Assembly (NCBI RefSeq): GCF_002551245.1
Contig: NZ_NTGZ01000001.1
Location: 62,001 to 126,000 of the forward strand
From: Streptomyces sp. rh34
GTDB lineage: Bacteria > Actinomycetota > Actinomycetes > Streptomycetales > Streptomycetaceae
Direction of reading: 5' to 3'
DNA length: 64,000 nucleotides
Of this stretch, positions 12,751 through 58,614 are shown piece by piece. A program made the position numbers and the translations under genes. Below the pieces are notes generated by a model, which made no database searches, was not told the origin of the DNA, and saw only the letters and a list, made by a program, of their open reading frames with translations. Position 1 is the stretch's first letter. Each line of letters opens with the position of its first letter.

Positions 12751-15700
12751 CTATCGGGCTCCCGCCCCGACCGCCTCCCGTTCGCGCTCCAGCATGCGTC
12801 GCAGCGGCCCGTCCTCGGCGGCGAGTTCGGCGTACGGCCCGCGCTGTACGACCCGGCCCTCGTCCAGCACCAGTACCTCGTCGACCGTGTCGAGGCCGGT
12901 CAGCCGGTGGGTGATCAGTACCGTCGCACGGCCCCGGGTCGCGTCCAGCAGGTCCGCGGTGAGGGCGTCGGCGGTCGGCAGGTCGAGGTGTTCGGCCGGC
13001 TCGTCCAGAACGAGTACCGGGAAGTCCGCGAGCAGCGCGCGGGCCAGGGCGAGGCGCTGGCGCTGACCGCCGGAGAGCCGCGCGCCGTGCTCGCCCACCG
13101 GGGTGTCGAGCTCCTCCGGCAGGGCCAGCACCCAGTCCAGGAGCCGGGCCCGGGAGAGCGCGTCGCGCAGTTCGGCGTCGGTCGCACCGGGGCGGGCCAG
13201 GCGCAGGTTCTCGCGGATCGTGCTGTCGAAGACGTGCGCGTCCTGGGCGCACAGCCCGACCGAGCGCCGGACCGTCTCCGATTCCAGCGCGGACGCCTCG
13301 ACGCCGCCCAGCCGGTACGTCCCCGACGAGGCGTCCAGGAAGCGCAGCAGGACCTGTGCGAGCGTCGTCTTGCCCGAGCCGGAGGGGCCCACGACCGCGA
13401 TGCGCCGCCCTCGCGTCAGCGTCAGGTCGAGCGAGGCGAGCGCGTCGTGCCGGGCCCCCGGGTAGCGGGCGCTCAGCCCCCGTACCTCCAGCGGGAACGG
13501 GGACGTGGACTCCTCGGCGGGGGCCTCGGGCTCCCGTACGGGCACGGGGGCGTCCAGCACCTCGAACACCCGCTCGGCGCTCCGGGCGACGCGCTGCCGG
13601 TACTGCACGGCGAGCGGCAGCCCGGTGACGGCCTCGAAGGCGGCGAGCGGGGTCAGCACCACCACGGCGAGCGCGACACCGGACAGCCGGCCGTCCTGCA
13701 CGGCGGGGACGGCGACGGTCGCGGCGGCCACCACGGTGAGGCCGCAGACCAGGGCGGACAGCCCGCCGCCCAGTGCCGTCGCGGCGGCGGCGCGCGAGGC
13801 GATCCGGGTCAGCAGCGTGTCGGCCGCGCGCAGCCGTGTCTGCCGGGCGGGCAGCGCGCCCGCGACGGTCAGTTCGGCGGTGCCACCGAGGAGGTCGGTG
13901 ACCCGGGTGGCCAGAGCGGCGCGGGCGGGAGCGAGCTGACGTTCCGTACGGCGGGCGCAGGCGCCGCTGACGAGCGGGACGCCGACCCCGGCGATCAGCA
14001 GTCCGACAGCCAGGACGGCGCCCGCCTCCGGGAGCAGCCAGCCGGTGAACCCGGCGGCCGCGGTCCCCACCACGACGGCGGTGCCGGCGGGCAGCAGCCA
14101 GCGCAGCCAGTAGTCCTGGAGCGCGTCCACGTCGGCGACGAGCCGGGACAGCAGGTCTCCGCGGCGCCTGGTGCGCAGGCCCCCGGGGGCGATGCGTTCG
14201 AGACCCCGGTAGACGGCGACGCGCAGTCCGGCGAGGAGCTTCAGGACGGCGTCGTGCGAGACGAGCCGCTCGGCGTAGCGGAAGACCGCCCGGCCGATCC
14301 CGAAGGCGCGGGTCGCGGTGACCGCCATCATCAAGTACATGACCGGCGGCTCTTCGGAGGCGCGGGAGATCAGCCAGCCGGAGACCGCCATGAGTCCCAC
14401 GGCCGACCCGACCGCCAGGCTGCCGAGCAGCAGGGCCAGGGTCAGTCGTCCGCGCTGCGCCCCGGCGGACTCGCGGACCCGCGCGAGCACCCGTCCGGAA
14501 CGGGCACCGGTCCTCCCCGGACCGCCGTCGGCCGCGCGCAGTTCCTCCGCCCGGCGGGCATCCAGGAGTTCGCCCCCGGCGAGCGGCTGCGGGACGGCCG
14601 GTCCGGCAGCACCCGGGCTCTGGGGCGCCGCCGCGGGCCCCGTGGAAACGCCGGTACGCGGCTCCAGCGTCACCACGCGGTCGGCGACCGCCAGCAGGGC
14701 CGGGCGGTGGACGACCAGCAGCACGGTCCGCCCGGCGGCCAGCCTCCGTACGGCGTCGACGATGCCCGCCTCGCTCTCGCCGTCCAGGCTCGCGGTCGGC
14801 TCGTCCAGCAGCAGGAGCGGCCGGTCGGCGAGGAACGCCCGGGCGAGGGCGAGTCGCTGGCGCTGGCCCGCGGAGAGTCCGGCGCCGTCCTCGCCCAGCA
14901 ACGTCCGCATCCCGTCGGGCAGTGCCGCGACGAAGTCGTACGCGCCCGCCTCCCGCAGCGCCGCGAGGACCGCCTCGTCGTCGGCGTCGGGCCGGGCGAG
15001 GCGTACGTTCTCGGCGATCGTGCCCGCGAAGAGGTGGGGGCGCTGGGGGACCCAGGCGATGCGGCCGCGCCAGCGTTCGAGGTCCAGGTCCGCGAGGTCC
15101 CGGCCTCCGACCCGGACGTGCCCCTCGTCGGGTACGGCAAACCCGAGGAGCACGTTCAGCAGGGTGGACTTGCCGACCCCGCTCGGGCCGACCAGGGCGA
15201 CGGTCTCCCCCGGCTCCACGGTGAGCGACGCGGCGTCCACCGGGGGTTCGGTGCGGCCCTCGTGGCGCACGGTCACGCCCGCCAGTTCCAGGCGCAGCGT
15301 GTCCGGGACATCCTCGGCGCCCGAGGCCCGGGGTTCGGTCTCCAGGACCGCGAAGATCTCCTCGGCCGCCGAGAGGCCCTCGGCCGCCGCGTGATACTGC
15401 GCTCCGACCTGGCGGATCGGCAGATAGGCCTCCGGAGCCAGGATCAGGACCACCAGACCGGTGTAGAGGTCGAGTTCGCCGTGGACGAGGCGCATGCCGA
15501 TCGTGACGGCGACGAGGGCCACCGAGAGGGTCGCCAGCAGCTCCAGCGCGAACGAGGACAGAAAAGCGATCCGCAGGGTGCGCAGGGTGGCCCGGCGGTA
15601 GTCGGAGGTGATCGTGCGGATCGATTCGGCCTGGGCCTTGGCCCGTCCGAAGACCTTCAGGGTCGGCAGCCCGGCGACGACGTCCAGGAAGTGCCCGGAG

Positions 15701-16296
15701 AGCCGGGACAGCAACTGCCACTGACGGTCCATCCGGGACTGGGTGGCCCAGCCGATCAGGATCATGAAGAGCGGGATGAGCGGCAGCGTGACGACGATGA
15801 TCGCCGCCGACACCCAGTCCTCGGTGACGATCCGGGCGAGCACCGCCACGGGCACCACGACCGCGAGCCCGAGCTGCGGGAGATAGCGGGCGAAGTAGTC
15901 GTCGAGCGCGTCGATGCCCCGGGTCGCCAGAGCGACGAGCGAACCGGTGCGCTGCCCGCTCAGCCAGTCGGGGCCCAGCCGGGCGGCCCGCTCCAGGAGG
16001 CGGCCGCGCAGTTCGGACTTGACGGCCGCGCTGGCACGATGGGCCGCCAGCTCGGTGAGCCAGGCGACGAGGGCCCGCCCGAGAGCGACCGCGGCGAGCA
16101 GCAGAAGGGGGGTGCGCAGCGCGGTGACCGTGAGTCCGCCCTCGAAACCGCCCACCACGATCTCGGCGATGAGCATCGCCTGGGCGATCACCAGGAGGGC
16201 GCCGACCAGGCCGAGGGCCACCACGGCCGCCAGGAAGAGGCGGGTGGCCCGTGCGTGGTGGAGCAGACGCGGATCGATCGGTTTCACGTGAAACAT
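12751..16296 (-). CDS. cydCD: Fused CydD-CydC thiol-reductant ABC exporter
   Basis: 1181-aa fusion of two half-transporters, each membrane domain plus ATPase. The N-terminal CydD half has Walker A GPSGVGKST near 370 and an LSAGQ signature near 472. The CydC half has GPSGSGKTT near 969 and LSGGQ near 1072. It exports cysteine/glutathione-type thiols needed to assemble cytochrome bd. The separate E. coli cydD and cydC are fused in many actinobacteria. The start ATG is unusual: it overlaps a parS site, so the protein begins MFHVKP. It lies 78 bp after cydB. Confidence 0.95.
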   Translation of the reverse strand: MFHVKPIDPRLLHHARATRLFLAAVVALGLVGALLVIAQAMLIAEIVVGGFEGGLTVTALRTPLLLLAAVALGRALVAWLTELAAHRASAAVKSELRGRLLERAARLGPDWLSGQRTGSLVALATRGIDALDDYFARYLPQLGLAVVVPVAVLARIVTEDWVSAAIIVVTLPLIPLFMILIGWATQSRMDRQWQLLSRLSGHFLDVVAGLPTLKVFGRAKAQAESIRTITSDYRRATLRTLRIAFLSSFALELLATLSVALVAVTIGMRLVHGELDLYTGLVVLILAPEAYLPIRQVGAQYHAAAEGLSAAEEIFAVLETEPRASGAEDVPDTLRLELAGVTVRHEGRTEPPVDAASLTVEPGETVALVGPSGVGKSTLLNVLLGFAVPDEGHVRVGGRDLADLDLERWRGRIAWVPQRPHLFAGTIAENVRLARPDADDEAVLAALREAGAYDFVAALPDGMRTLLGEDGAGLSAGQRQRLALARAFLADRPLLLLDEPTASLDGESEAGIVDAVRRLAAGRTVLLVVHRPALLAVADRVVTLEPRTGVSTGPAAAPQSPGAAGPAVPQPLAGGELLDARRAEELRAADGGPGRTGARSGRVLARVRESAGAQRGRLTLALLLGSLAVGSAVGLMAVSGWLISRASEEPPVMYLMMAVTATRAFGIGRAVFRYAERLVSHDAVLKLLAGLRVAVYRGLERIAPGGLRTRRRGDLLSRLVADVDALQDYWLRWLLPAGTAVVVGTAAAGFTGWLLPEAGAVLAVGLLIAGVGVPLVSGACARRTERQLAPARAALATRVTDLLGGTAELTVAGALPARQTRLRAADTLLTRIASRAAAATALGGGLSALVCGLTVVAAATVAVPAVQDGRLSGVALAVVVLTPLAAFEAVTGLPLAVQYRQRVARSAERVFEVLDAPVPVREPEAPAEESTSPFPLEVRGLSARYPGARHDALASLDLTLTRGRRIAVVGPSGSGKTTLAQVLLRFLDASSGTYRLGGVEASALESETVRRSVGLCAQDAHVFDSTIRENLRLARPGATDAELRDALSRARLLDWVLALPEELDTPVGEHGARLSGGQRQRLALARALLADFPVLVLDEPAEHLDLPTADALTADLLDATRGRATVLITHRLTGLDTVDEVLVLDEGRVVQRGPYAELAAEDGPLRRMLEREREAVGAGAR
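16281..16294. other. parS: parS site overlapping the cydCD start
   Basis: Perfect GTTTCACGTGAAAC, the Streptomyces ParB-binding palindrome. The cydCD ATG occupies 16294-16296, so the site encodes codons 1-5. Confidence 0.9.
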
Positions 16297-32946: not shown

Positions 32947-33483
32947 GTGTTTCACGTGAAACCACTCAAGCGCCCCGTACGCCGAGGAATCCTCGTCTCC
33001 CATGTCGCCGTCTCCGTCAGCTGGCTCGGCCTGACCGTCGGCCTGCTGACGCTCGGCATCACCGCGTTCGCCACCGGAGATCCGGCCACCGCGGACGCCG
33101 CCACGCGGTCCATGAAGATCTACGGGGACTGGCTGGTGGCCCCGGTGGCTCTGCTCGCCCTGGTGAGCGGCCTGGTGCTGTCGCTGGGCACTCCGTGGGG
33201 CCTGGCCCGGCACCGCTGGGTGTGGACCAAGTTCTGGCTGACCCTGGTGACGACGGGCCTGTCGATCTTCTCCCTGCGCCCCGGCATCAACGCCGCGGTC
33301 GCCGACGGAGCGGTGGGCGTCGACCTCGTGATCGCGCCGTCGGTGGCCACGGCCACCTATCTCTTCATCACCGCGATCTCGGTGCTCAAGCCCTGGGGGC
33401 TCACCAGGCGCGGCAGGCGACTGCGGATCTCGGCCAGTTCCGCGAAATCGGTGGACGCGCGATCACCCCGTCGGACAGCCTGA
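32947..33483 (+). CDS. Four-span membrane protein, DUF2269-like
   Basis: 178 aa with four membrane spans (about 15-38, 57-80, 95-112, 122-140) and a basic tail. No catalytic motif. The start is remarkable: GTG 32947 is followed by a perfect parS, so the protein begins V/M-F-H-V-K-P, exactly as cydCD does. No good Shine-Dalgarno is visible, and GTG 32956 inside parS could be the true start. The next gene begins 4 bp after the stop. Confidence 0.8.
   Translation: MFHVKPLKRPVRRGILVSHVAVSVSWLGLTVGLLTLGITAFATGDPATADAATRSMKIYGDWLVAPVALLALVSGLVLSLGTPWGLARHRWVWTKFWLTLVTTGLSIFSLRPGINAAVADGAVGVDLVIAPSVATATYLFITAISVLKPWGLTRRGRRLRISASSAKSVDARSPRRTA
32949..32962. other. parS: parS site at a gene start
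   Basis: Perfect GTTTCACGTGAAAC lying over codons 1-6 of the membrane protein gene that starts at 32947. Confidence 0.9.
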
Positions 33484-36773: not shown

Positions 36774-36792
36774 AAAGCGCGGACGGGTGGGT

Positions 36793-36806
36793 GTTTCACG
36801 TGAAAC
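36793..36806. other. parS: parS site in a 30-bp palindrome between convergent genes
   Basis: Perfect GTTTCACGTGAAAC inside a perfect palindrome spanning 36785-36814. It lies between the stops of the GNAT gene (36773) and the serine hydrolase gene (36831), so it may also terminate both. Confidence 0.9.
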
Positions 36807-36830
36807 ACCCACCCACTACCGGCCGGAGGA

Positions 36831-43848: not shown

Positions 43849-43867
43849 TCCGCATGGATCGCGGTCT

Positions 43868-43881
43868 GTTTCACGTGAAAC
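43868..43881. other. parS: parS site in a 28-bp palindrome
   Basis: Perfect GTTTCACGTGAAAC inside a perfect 28-bp palindrome (43861-43888), 12 bp after the MATE stop, where it could also terminate transcription. Confidence 0.92.
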
Positions 43882-43890
43882 AGACCGCCC

Positions 43891-43904
43891 GTTTCACGTG
43901 AAAC
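43891..43904. other. parS: parS site, second of a pair
   Basis: Perfect GTTTCACGTGAAAC centred 23 bp from the preceding site. Tandem parS should favour ParB nucleation. Confidence 0.92.
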
Positions 43905-55607: not shown

Positions 55608-55623
55608 TGTGACGCTTGCTCCC

Positions 55624-56892
55624 ATGTCTGTCGCGCGTGACCTGCGCACCCTGCTGCGCCTGCGGAACTTCCGCCGCCTGCTCACCGTGCGGCTGCTGTC
55701 CCAGTCCGCCGACGGCGTCTACCAAGTCGCCCTCGCCGCGTACGTCGTCTTCTCCCCCGAGAAGCAGACGTCGGCCGCCGCCATCGCTTCCGCGATGGCC
55801 GTACTCCTCCTGCCCTACTCCCTGATCGGGCCCTTCGCGGGGGTTCTGCTGGACCGCTGGCCCCGACGGCAGGTCTTCCTCTACGGGAACCTTCTGCGGG
55901 CCGCTCTGGCCTGCTCCACGGCCCTGCTGATTCTCGCCTCGGTGCCCGACTGGCTCTTCTACGCCTCGGCCCTGTGCGTCACCGCCGTCAACCGTTTCGT
56001 GCTGGCCGGTCTCTCCGCCGCCCTGCCCCGGGTGGTCGACACCGACCGCCTCGTCGTCGCCAACTCCCTGTCCCCCACCGCGGGCACCCTGGCGGCCACC
56101 GCGGGAGGCGGCCTCGCTTTCGTCGTGCGGCTGGTGGCTGACGAGTCCGACGCGGCGGTCGTCCTGCTGGGGTCGATGCTCTACCTGCTCTCCGCGCTGG
56201 CGTCCCTGAGCCTGCCCCGCACCCTGCTGGGACCGGATACCGACGGGAGGCCCCTGCGGCTGCGGTCCGCTCTGGCCGTCACCGCACGCGGGCTCATCGC
56301 CGGGCTGCGCCATCTGGCACAGCGGAGACATGCGGCCGGGGCACTGGCCGCGATGACCGTGATCCGCTTCTGTTACGGCGCGCTCACCGTGATGGTGCTC
56401 ATGCTGTGCCGCTACGCCTGGTCGGACACCGAGTCCGACGGGCTGGCGCTGCTCGGTCTGGCGGTCGGGGTGTCCGGCGCGGGGTTCTTCGTCGCCGCCG
56501 TCCTCACCCCATGGGCGGTGGGTCAGCTCGGCCGGTACGGATGGATCGTGGGCTGCGCCGGCGCGGCGGCGGTCCTGGTGCCCGCCCTGGGCCTCTCCTT
56601 CGCTCCCGCCCCGATGCTGATCGCCGCGTTCGTGCTCGGCGTCGTGACCCAGGGTTCGAAGATCGCGACCGACACGGTCGTGCAGACCTCGGTCGACGAT
56701 TCCTTCCGCGGCCGGGTCTTCGCGCTCTACGACGTGCTCTTCAACGTCGCGTTCGTGAGCGCCGCAGGGGTGGCGGCCCTGATGCTCCCGCCGGACGGCA
56801 GATCAGTCGCCGTCGTGACGGTCGTGTCGGTGCTGTACGCGGTGGTCGCGGCGGCGATGTTCCGCCGGCGACGCACCGACGCCCACCGGTAA
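55624..56892 (+). CDS. MFS transporter
   Basis: 422 aa, about twelve membrane spans, of the MFS_3/enterobactin-exporter-like type. LLTVRLLSQSADGVYQVALAA (about 19-39) and the loop DRWPRRQVFLYGN after span 2 support this. Substrate unknown. ATG 55624 has no clear ribosome site; GTG 55609 is an alternative overlapping the preceding terminator. It ends 8 bp before a 54-bp parS-centred palindrome. Confidence 0.87.
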   Translation: MSVARDLRTLLRLRNFRRLLTVRLLSQSADGVYQVALAAYVVFSPEKQTSAAAIASAMAVLLLPYSLIGPFAGVLLDRWPRRQVFLYGNLLRAALACSTALLILASVPDWLFYASALCVTAVNRFVLAGLSAALPRVVDTDRLVVANSLSPTAGTLAATAGGGLAFVVRLVADESDAAVVLLGSMLYLLSALASLSLPRTLLGPDTDGRPLRLRSALAVTARGLIAGLRHLAQRRHAAGALAAMTVIRFCYGALTVMVLMLCRYAWSDTESDGLALLGLAVGVSGAGFFVAAVLTPWAVGQLGRYGWIVGCAGAAAVLVPALGLSFAPAPMLIAAFVLGVVTQGSKIATDTVVQTSVDDSFRGRVFALYDVLFNVAFVSAAGVAALMLPPDGRSVAVVTVVSVLYAVVAAAMFRRRRTDAHR

Positions 56893-56919
56893 CCGGTCAT
56901 GGATGTGCCGAGGGGCGTT

Positions 56920-56933
56920 GTTTCACGTGAAAC
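56920..56933. other. parS: parS site at the centre of a 54-bp perfect palindrome
   Basis: Perfect GTTTCACGTGAAAC exactly at the centre of a palindrome covering 56900-56953 (27 paired bases each side), between the convergent MFS and cca genes. It should fold as a very strong hairpin in RNA. Confidence 0.95.
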
Positions 56934-56962
56934 AACGCCCCTCGGCACATCCAACGGCTGAT

Positions 56963-56976
56963 GTTTCACGTGAAAC
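56963..56976. other. parS: parS site, second of a pair
   Basis: Perfect GTTTCACGTGAAAC centred 43 bp from the preceding one, 15 bp from the cca stop. Confidence 0.92.
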
Positions 56977-56991: not shown

Positions 56992-58434
56992 TCAGTCCTG
57001 CCGCGCCCACCACTCCTTGAGTGCCGCCACCGCCGCATCCCTCTCCATCGGCCCGTGCTCCAGGCGCAGCTCCAGCAGGAACCCGTACGCCTTGCCGATC
57101 ACCGGGCCGGGACCGACACCGAGGATCTGCATGATCTCGTTGCCGTCCAGGTCGGGGCGGATCGATTCGAGCTCTTCCTGCTCCTGCAGCAGGGCGATGC
57201 GCTCCTCCAGCCCGTCATAGGTGCGGGAGAGCGCGTTCGCCTTGCGCTTGTTCCGGGTCGTGCAGTCCGACCGGGTCAGCTTGTGGAGACGTTCGAGCAG
57301 CGGCCCGGCGTCGCGCACATACCGGCGCACCGCGGAGTCGGTCCACTCTCCGTCGCCGTACCCGTGGAAGCGCAGGTGCAGTTCCACCAGCTTCGACACG
57401 TCCTTGACCAGCTCGTTGGAGTACTTGAGCTCGGTCATGCGCTTCTTCGTCATCTTCGCGCCCACCACTTCGTGGTGGTGGAAGGAGACCCTGCCGTCCT
57501 TCTCGAAGCGGCGGGTCCTCGGCTTGCCGATGTCATGGAGCAGCGCGGCCAGACGCAGCACGAGGTCGGGTCCGTCCTCCTCCAGGCCGATGGCCTGCTC
57601 CAGGACGGTCAGCGAGTGCTCGTAGACGTCCTTGTGACGGTGATGCTCGTCACTCTCCAGGCGCAGTGCGGGAAGCTCGGGCAGCACCTGCTCGGCCAGC
57701 CCCGTGTCGACCAGGAGCCCCAGACCCTTGCGCGGGTGCTGAGAGAGCAGCAGCTTGTTGAGTTCGTCGCGGACCCGCTCGGCGGAGACGATGCCGATCC
57801 GCGCGGCCATCCCCGTCATGGCGGTGACGACGTCGGGGGCGACCTCGAAGTCGAGCTGCGCGGCAAAGCGGGCCGCGCGCAGCATGCGCAGCGGGTCGTC
57901 GGAGAAGGAGGCCTCGGGCGTGCCCGGAGTGCGCAGCACCCGCTCGGCGAGGTCCTTGAGACCTCCGTACGGGTCGACGAACTCCTTCTGCGGCAGAGCC
58001 ACGGCCATCGCGTTGACCGTGAAGTCGCGGCGTACGAGGTCGTCCTCGATGGAGTCGCCGTAGGAGACCTCCGGCTTGCGCGAGGTCCGGTCGTAGGCCT
58101 CGGACCGGTAGGTCGTGACCTCGATCTGATAGCCGTCCTTCTGGGAACCGACGGTGCCGAAGGCGATCCCGACCTCCCACACCGAGTCGGCCCAGGGCCG
58201 GACGATCTTGAGCACGTCCTCGGGGCGGGCATCGGTGGTGAAGTCCAAGTCGTTCCCGAGCCTGCCCAGCAGTGCGTCGCGGACCGAGCCGCCGACCAGC
58301 GCGAGGCCGAATCCGGCCTCCTGGAATCGACGGGCGAGGTCGTCGGCTACCGGGGACACCCGGAGCAGTTCACTCACCGCGCGGTGCTGCACCTGGCTCA
58401 GTGCACTGGCGTTCTCTTCGTTGGCGTTCGGCAC
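56992..58434 (-). CDS. cca: CCA tRNA nucleotidyltransferase
   Basis: 480 aa. The class II head has LVGGSVRDALLGRLGNDLDF (about 40-59) with the catalytic D-x-D, then RRDFTVNAMA near 125 and an RNA-binding domain. An HD domain follows (LLHDIGKPRTRR near 297), giving phosphohydrolase activity in relatives. It adds or repairs CCA at tRNA 3' ends. GTG 58434 fits family N-termini (VPNANEENA); GTG 58455 would add seven residues. Neither has a Shine-Dalgarno, so it may be leaderless. Confidence 0.94.
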   Translation of the reverse strand: MPNANEENASALSQVQHRAVSELLRVSPVADDLARRFQEAGFGLALVGGSVRDALLGRLGNDLDFTTDARPEDVLKIVRPWADSVWEVGIAFGTVGSQKDGYQIEVTTYRSEAYDRTSRKPEVSYGDSIEDDLVRRDFTVNAMAVALPQKEFVDPYGGLKDLAERVLRTPGTPEASFSDDPLRMLRAARFAAQLDFEVAPDVVTAMTGMAARIGIVSAERVRDELNKLLLSQHPRKGLGLLVDTGLAEQVLPELPALRLESDEHHRHKDVYEHSLTVLEQAIGLEEDGPDLVLRLAALLHDIGKPRTRRFEKDGRVSFHHHEVVGAKMTKKRMTELKYSNELVKDVSKLVELHLRFHGYGDGEWTDSAVRRYVRDAGPLLERLHKLTRSDCTTRNKRKANALSRTYDGLEERIALLQEQEELESIRPDLDGNEIMQILGVGPGPVIGKAYGFLLELRLEHGPMERDAAVAALKEWWARQD

Positions 58435-58614
58435 AACAGAAAAGGGTACGTGCACGGACCGGCCGGGGCGTCATCGTTTACGGGGACCCTGCGGGATACC
58501 CGCGATCATGTGCGATGGACCCCAGCACTTCGGCCCGCCGCACCTCGTTACCATGCGGGGACGCAGGACCGAGCGATCGACAGCATCTGATGACGACGAG
58601 GGACGGGTAGGCGC

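What the first reader, a model, noticed from the sequence alone, without database searches (positions are those of the whole stretch)
56900..56953. 54-bp perfect palindrome centred exactly on parS between convergent genes
27 bases pair on each side with no mismatch, and the innermost 14 are a perfect parS. The element sits 8 bp after the MFS stop and 39 bp before the cca stop. RNA from either side would form a 27-bp hairpin, so one sequence appears to serve both ParB loading and bidirectional termination. Such long perfect palindromes are normally unstable, so retention implies selection.
Basis: partly seen in the sequence, partly recalled or inferred. Interest (0 to 1): 0.75.

Follow-up and report, generated by a model that had tools for sequence, protein, structure and literature searches.

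The report
Centromere site doubling as transcription terminator
In Streptomyces, a DNA site that helps move chromosomes apart (parS) is built into the tip of a long hairpin that most likely stops transcription from the two genes facing it, and matched changes across about 90 species show that evolution keeps the hairpin as well as the site.

Summary
In Streptomyces this gap normally holds two parS. In 71 of 80 related loci at least one has perfect arms of 12 bp or more. The arms vary in sequence but stay complementary, through dozens of double changes on a cca tree.

Long arms follow gene 3' ends: common at convergent junctions, rare at tandem ones, absent from 8 divergent ones. Within one tandem gap, parS near the upstream stop codon often has arms (8/16); parS over the next gene's start never does (0/29). 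With parS masked, only one of 79 cca gaps keeps another strong hairpin. Some genera have an ordinary hairpin in the same slot instead.

Best explanation: parS is the loop end of a U-poor, bidirectional 3'-end hairpin (terminator or 3'-end stabiliser). ParB binding and transcript ends were not measured here. I found no description of this in the open papers searched. Verdict: real, a new variant made of two known elements.

The parts
56900..56953 (.). 54-bp perfect palindrome: predicted bidirectional 3'-end hairpin (terminator) with parS at its apex
   Evidence: RNA folds of the whole gap: -68.8 kcal/mol (z -9.5, + strand) and -70.8 (z -9.1, - strand)
56920..56933 (.). parS core GTTTCACGTGAAAC (tip of the hairpin: 5-bp stem plus ACGU loop)
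56963..56976 (.). second, cca-proximal parS; arm only 8 here, but perfect arms of 12-25 bp in most relatives
55609..56892 (+). MFS transporter gene, transcribed towards the palindrome (start uncertain: 55609 or 55624)
56992..58455 (-). cca, CCA tRNA nucleotidyltransferase (TIGR02692), transcribed towards the palindrome
36785..36814 (.). parS-centred palindrome (arms 15) between a GNAT acetyltransferase and a serine beta-lactamase-fold gene, convergent; orthologous sites in the genus: 15 of 30 parS with arms of 12 or more
43861..43888 (.). parS-centred palindrome (arms 14) between a MATE transporter gene and the ribosomal protein L9 gene, convergent; another parS at 43891-43904

Best explanation
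The palindrome is a composite element: a ParB-binding parS sits at the tip of a long hairpin that acts, in either direction, as the 3'-end signal of two convergent genes (MFS transporter and cca). RNA polymerase from either side copies the whole palindrome, and the nascent RNA folds into a stem of about 25 pairs with an ACGU loop supplied by parS. This most likely ends transcription in the U-poor ('I-shaped') manner proposed for GC-rich bacteria, or sets the stable 3' end. The two roles use different parts: parS fixes the inner 14-16 bp, while the outer arms are free to change as long as they stay complementary. Shown: anatomy, covariation, 3'-end placement, lack of another hairpin in the gap, replacement by an ordinary hairpin in genera without parS there. 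Inferred: termination itself and ParB loading at this copy.
For: (1) Gap conserved: 74 of 81 cca loci (window included) have two exact parS, the rest one; 71 of 80 relatives have at least one perfect arm of 12 bp or more. (2) Covariation: at arm positions 9-17, 618/801 cells are Watson-Crick at the cca-proximal site (permuted partners 383, sd 12) and 714/801 at the distal site (531, sd 9), with 106 and 84 inferred WC-to-WC double changes. (3) Context: arms of 12 or more in 107/146 convergent parS of the cca set and 13/36 elsewhere, against 4/53 tandem, 0/8 divergent, 1/9 in-gene (Fisher 6e-4 outside the cca set). (4) Within-gap control at cydB-cydD: 8/16 parS nearer the upstream stop have arms, 0/29 over or next to the downstream start (Fisher 6e-5). 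(5) With parS masked, only 1 of 79 cca gaps keeps a hairpin scoring 10 or more, and that one (L085) has a damaged parS in an otherwise perfect hairpin scoring 24. (6) Other genera have GTTCCACGTGGAAC-centred hairpins or parS-free hairpins there. (7) T content just after the stem matches non-parS convergent hairpins (0.23 v 0.22; background 0.15).
Against: No Term-seq or RNA-seq data could be read, so termination is inferred. No U-tract: the consensus scan finds no terminator. Mismatches of the G-U and A-C kinds are both common, so RNA-level and DNA-level selection are not separated by wobble. The effect is uneven: outside cca it rests on a handful of loci, and some cca gaps lack a hairpin (L187, L205). 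Gene orientation comes from a home-made gene finder. Double-change counts treat positions as independent, although a whole arm could be rewritten in one event.
Confidence: 0.75

Rival explanations
1. The hairpin is a 3'-end stabiliser, not a terminator: transcription ends further on (Rho or collision) and exonucleases trim the RNA back to the stem.
For: Lack of a U-tract; Term-seq work on Streptomyces says many ends may be Rho-dependent or processed and lie close to the stem base (PMC12207403; PMC8914203).
Against: Nothing here excludes it. It predicts the same covariation and the same 3'-end placement, and is a variant of the favoured reading.
Confidence: 0.3
2. The arms are an extended ParB site or a DNA cruciform used for ParB or SMC loading, independent of transcription.
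For: The symmetry is that of parS; the palindromes are nearly perfect at DNA level; wobble pairs are not clearly favoured.
Against: Arm sequence is free, only complementarity is kept. Divergent parS and start-codon parS lack arms. Some hairpins are symmetric about the middle of two parS or of one and a half parS, not about a parS centre (L204, L222, L180, L290). One hairpin is kept around a damaged parS (L085).
Confidence: 0.08
3. Mutational origin without selection: template switching turns imperfect inverted repeats around parS into perfect palindromes.
For: L017 has an arm that looks copied between the two sites; L020 looks like a deletion between the two parS copies.
Against: The same mechanism should act on every parS, yet cydD start-site parS have arm 7 in 29 of 29 and divergent ones have none of 12 or more.
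Confidence: 0.05
4. ParB bound at parS is itself the roadblock that stops both polymerases, the hairpin being secondary.
For: parS between convergent genes is where a roadblock would matter (inference from position).
Against: Does not explain the arms, nor hairpins without parS in the same slot in other genera.
Confidence: 0.07

Closest known systems
parS of chromosomal ParABS (Streptomyces: 16-24 oriC-proximal sites; PMC4852455)
   Same: Exact 14-bp core, clustered (12 of 18 exact sites of this genome lie in one 178-kb contig).
   Different: The extra arms and their restriction to gene 3' ends are not mentioned in the Streptomyces ParB papers consulted.
I-shaped (U-poor) intrinsic terminators of GC-rich bacteria (Mitra et al. 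2009, as cited in PMC8914203) and long Streptomyces terminator hairpins (PMC12207403)
   Same: Very stable, GC-rich, long stem close to stop codons, few U after the stem.
   Different: The apex is a ParB-binding site fixed by another function; the palindrome is nearly loop-free.
Inverted DNA-uptake sequences used as terminators in Neisseria and Haemophilus (from memory, not tested)
   Same: A repeated, protein-recognised DNA motif also serves as terminator stem-loop between genes.
   Different: There two copies of the motif form the stem; here one copy is the tip and the stem is non-conserved added sequence (double-parS hairpins such as L222 come closer).

Membership tests
parS (ParABS centromere site) | GTTTCACGTGAAAC core | tested here: met
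   Exact match
parS (ParABS centromere site) | One of a cluster of copies in the chromosome | tested here: met
   18 exact copies in the genome, 12 of them in the 178-kb contig of the window, 0 for the reversed control pattern. Distance to oriC not tested
parS (ParABS centromere site) | Bound by ParB in vivo | not testable with these tools
   In S. venezuelae almost all ChIP peaks correspond to parS sites (PMC4852455); not tested for this strain
Canonical intrinsic terminator | GC-rich hairpin just after a stop codon | tested here: met
   8 bp after the MFS stop, 39 bp from the cca stop; folds with z -9.5 and -9.1
Canonical intrinsic terminator | U-tract after the stem | tested here: not met
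   0 terminator-like sites; mild T excess only across relatives
I-shaped (U-poor) terminator | Stable hairpin without U-trail at a transcript end | tested here: inconclusive
   Hairpin without U-trail at gene 3' ends: met; transcript end itself not measured
Bidirectional terminator | Hairpin shared by two convergent genes, foldable on both strands | tested here: met
   ends in vivo not measured

The most novel reading that the evidence does not exclude
parS and terminator are coupled in function: ParB occupancy changes termination of the convergent genes (or the terminator keeps transcription from sweeping ParB off its loading site), so that chromosome segregation and 3'-end formation near oriC influence each other during sporulation.
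Probability: 0.2. Interest if true: 0.85.

Novelty: new variant of a known kind. Interest (0 to 1): 0.62.

Why it matters
It shows one short DNA stretch under two separable selections, centromere function in DNA and (most likely) 3'-end formation in RNA, with many natural compensatory changes as evidence. It gives a reason why parS sites sit where they do in Streptomyces: they are built into gene punctuation (3' hairpins here, and start and stop codons at other sites). It makes a question directly testable: whether ParB-loaded centromeres must be insulated from, or are affected by, transcription.

Tried and rejected
Rfam search: only miRNA families far below gathering score, i.e. generic hairpins. 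Sigma-70 and U-tract terminator consensus scan: nothing. G-U against A-C mismatch counts to separate RNA from DNA selection: both elevated, inconclusive. Literature on parS plus terminators or convergent genes: no relevant hit; papers outside the open library, such as Jakimowicz et al. 2002, could not be read. The first run on the cca loci mis-oriented ten of them; corrected. The palindrome-instability argument was set aside, because parS-free hairpins of similar length occur in convergent gaps.

Full report
Observation. The interval is exactly as described: two 27-nt arms, 56900-56926 and 56927-56953, perfectly complementary and without spacer, with parS GTTTCACGTGAAAC at 56920-56933. The MFS gene ends at 56892 and cca (TIGR02692, CCA tRNA nucleotidyltransferase) ends, from the other side, at 56992. 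Twenty further matched pairs beyond the core have a chance of about 2e-11 at this base composition. A second exact parS stands at 56963-56976 in the same gap. The window holds 7 exact parS and the genome 18. The three longest perfect palindromes of the window are all parS-centred and all lie between convergent genes.

Relatives at the same gap. Eighty cca loci of Streptomyces were fetched. Together with the window, 74 of 81 have two exact parS after the cca stop, usually about 15-30 and 50-110 bp away, and the other 7 have one. In 71 of the 80 relatives at least one of them carries perfect arms of 12 bp or more, up to 26, and eight of the other nine reach 14 or more with one or two mismatches. 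The 27-bp arms of the window are at the long end but not unique: arms of 27 (L191) and 29 (L194) occur.

Covariation. Anchored on parS, arm positions 9-17 are Watson-Crick paired in 618 of 801 cells at the cca-proximal site and 714 of 801 at the distal site. Shuffling the right arms among species gives means of 383 (sd 12, maximum 421) and 531 (sd 9, maximum 562). On a tree of 89 cca genes, parsimony infers 106 and 84 changes from one Watson-Crick pair to another at those positions. These counts treat positions as independent, so a whole arm rewritten in one event counts several times; the conclusion that complementarity rather than sequence is kept does not depend on the exact number. Beyond about position 20 pairing falls to near the shuffled expectation.

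Where arms occur. Genes were called with a small codon-usage gene finder. Perfect arms of 12 bp or more are found at 107 of 146 convergent parS in the cca loci, 13 of 36 other convergent parS, 4 of 53 tandem, 0 of 8 divergent and 1 of 9 in-gene parS. Outside the cca set the convergent excess has Fisher p = 6e-4. Grouping sites by shared flanking sequence shows that the effect outside cca rests on few loci, so two were examined across the genus. At the convergent site 36793, 15 of 30 parS have arms of 12 or more, and several genomes whose parS there is bare carry a separate hairpin. In the tandem gap between cydB and the cydDC fusion gene, the last parS, normally overlapping the start of cydD, has no arms in 29 of 29 cases, while parS nearer the cydB stop has arms of 12 or more in 8 of 16 (Fisher 6e-5). 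This within-gap control argues that the arms serve transcript ends, not ParB.

The slot. With the parS cores masked, only one of 79 Streptomyces cca gaps keeps a hairpin scoring 10 or more. That one (L085) is a hairpin whose second parS is damaged (GTTTCACGTAAAAC) while the rest of the stem is perfect. In some genomes of genus g127 of the family, the hairpin is centred on GTTCCACGTGGAAC, a symmetric variant with 7-14 copies per genome there. In other genera (L213, L221, L209, L211) an ordinary hairpin not centred on parS fills the gap; L209 also has one bare parS. Convergent gaps without parS often hold similar hairpins: 10 of 37 score 12 or more, against 1 of 38 divergent gaps. The T content of the first 8 bases after the stem is 0.23 for parS hairpins, 0.22 for non-parS convergent hairpins and 0.15 in convergent gaps generally. 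RNA of the whole gap folds at -68.8 and -70.8 kcal/mol on the two strands, with z-scores of -9.5 and -9.1.

How it most likely works. parS provides a 5-bp stem and ACGU loop; the arms extend it to a stem of about 25 pairs that forms in RNA from either side. Published Term-seq analyses describe Streptomyces terminator hairpins as the longest and most stable of the species compared, with few U residues (PMC12207403), and interpret structured ends without a motif as I-shaped terminators or Rho-dependent ends (PMC8914203). I infer bidirectional termination or 3'-end stabilisation. The canonical U-tract is absent, so it is not filed as a canonical intrinsic terminator. ParB binding is inferred from the exact core and from ChIP-seq in S. 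venezuelae, where almost all peaks match parS (PMC4852455).

What was not shown. No transcript-end or ParB data were available for this site. Wobble counts do not separate RNA from DNA selection. A few cca gaps lack a hairpin (L187, L205).

Novelty. Searches of the open literature for parS together with terminators, convergent genes or stem-loops found no description, but subscription papers were out of reach. I regard it as a new variant made of two known elements.

Noticed in passing
window 16281-16294 (- strand gene 12751-16287, CydDC fusion); L271-L300: A parS overlaps the start of the cydDC fusion gene in nearly all 29 Streptomyces genomes checked: it spells (M)FHVK, with GTG or the ATG/GTG just before it as start codon. 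It never carries arms there.
   Followed up: partly
window 32949-32962, gene from about 32947 or 32956 to 33483 (+): A second, unrelated gene also starts inside or at parS in the same frame (MFHVK...), here a small membrane-protein-like gene.
   Followed up: no
L118:9477, L139:14529, L106:1501, L126, L132, L015: In 7 cases of the non-cca set parS supplies the TGA stop codon of a gene (overlap of 11 bases), and in 10 it overlaps a start by 7 bases: parS is built into gene punctuation in more than one way.
   Followed up: partly
G257, G254, G248, G263 (genus g127), G247 (g134): In these genomes the main parS-like repeat appears to be GTTCCACGTGGAAC (7-14 copies, against 1-5 of GTTTCACGTGAAAC), whereas G266 of the same genus g127 has 12 of the usual form and none of the variant: a possible centromere-sequence switch within one genus.
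   Followed up: partly
L020, after cca: Apparent deletion between the two parS copies, leaving one parS with mismatched arms.
   Followed up: no
L100 and L101, 1501: A parS stands right after sequence resembling a tRNA 3' part and just before what looks like another tRNA start, with arm 10, about 150 kb from the nearest listed parS.
   Followed up: no
genomes G155 and G071 (same phylum): 114 and 14 exact copies of GTTTCACGTGAAAC in genomes of about 3 Mb, far more than their relatives.
   Followed up: no
L145:18104-18256; L118:16038-16128: Convergent gaps without parS with near-perfect hairpins scoring 29 and 25 pairs, useful controls for long terminator palindromes.
   Followed up: no
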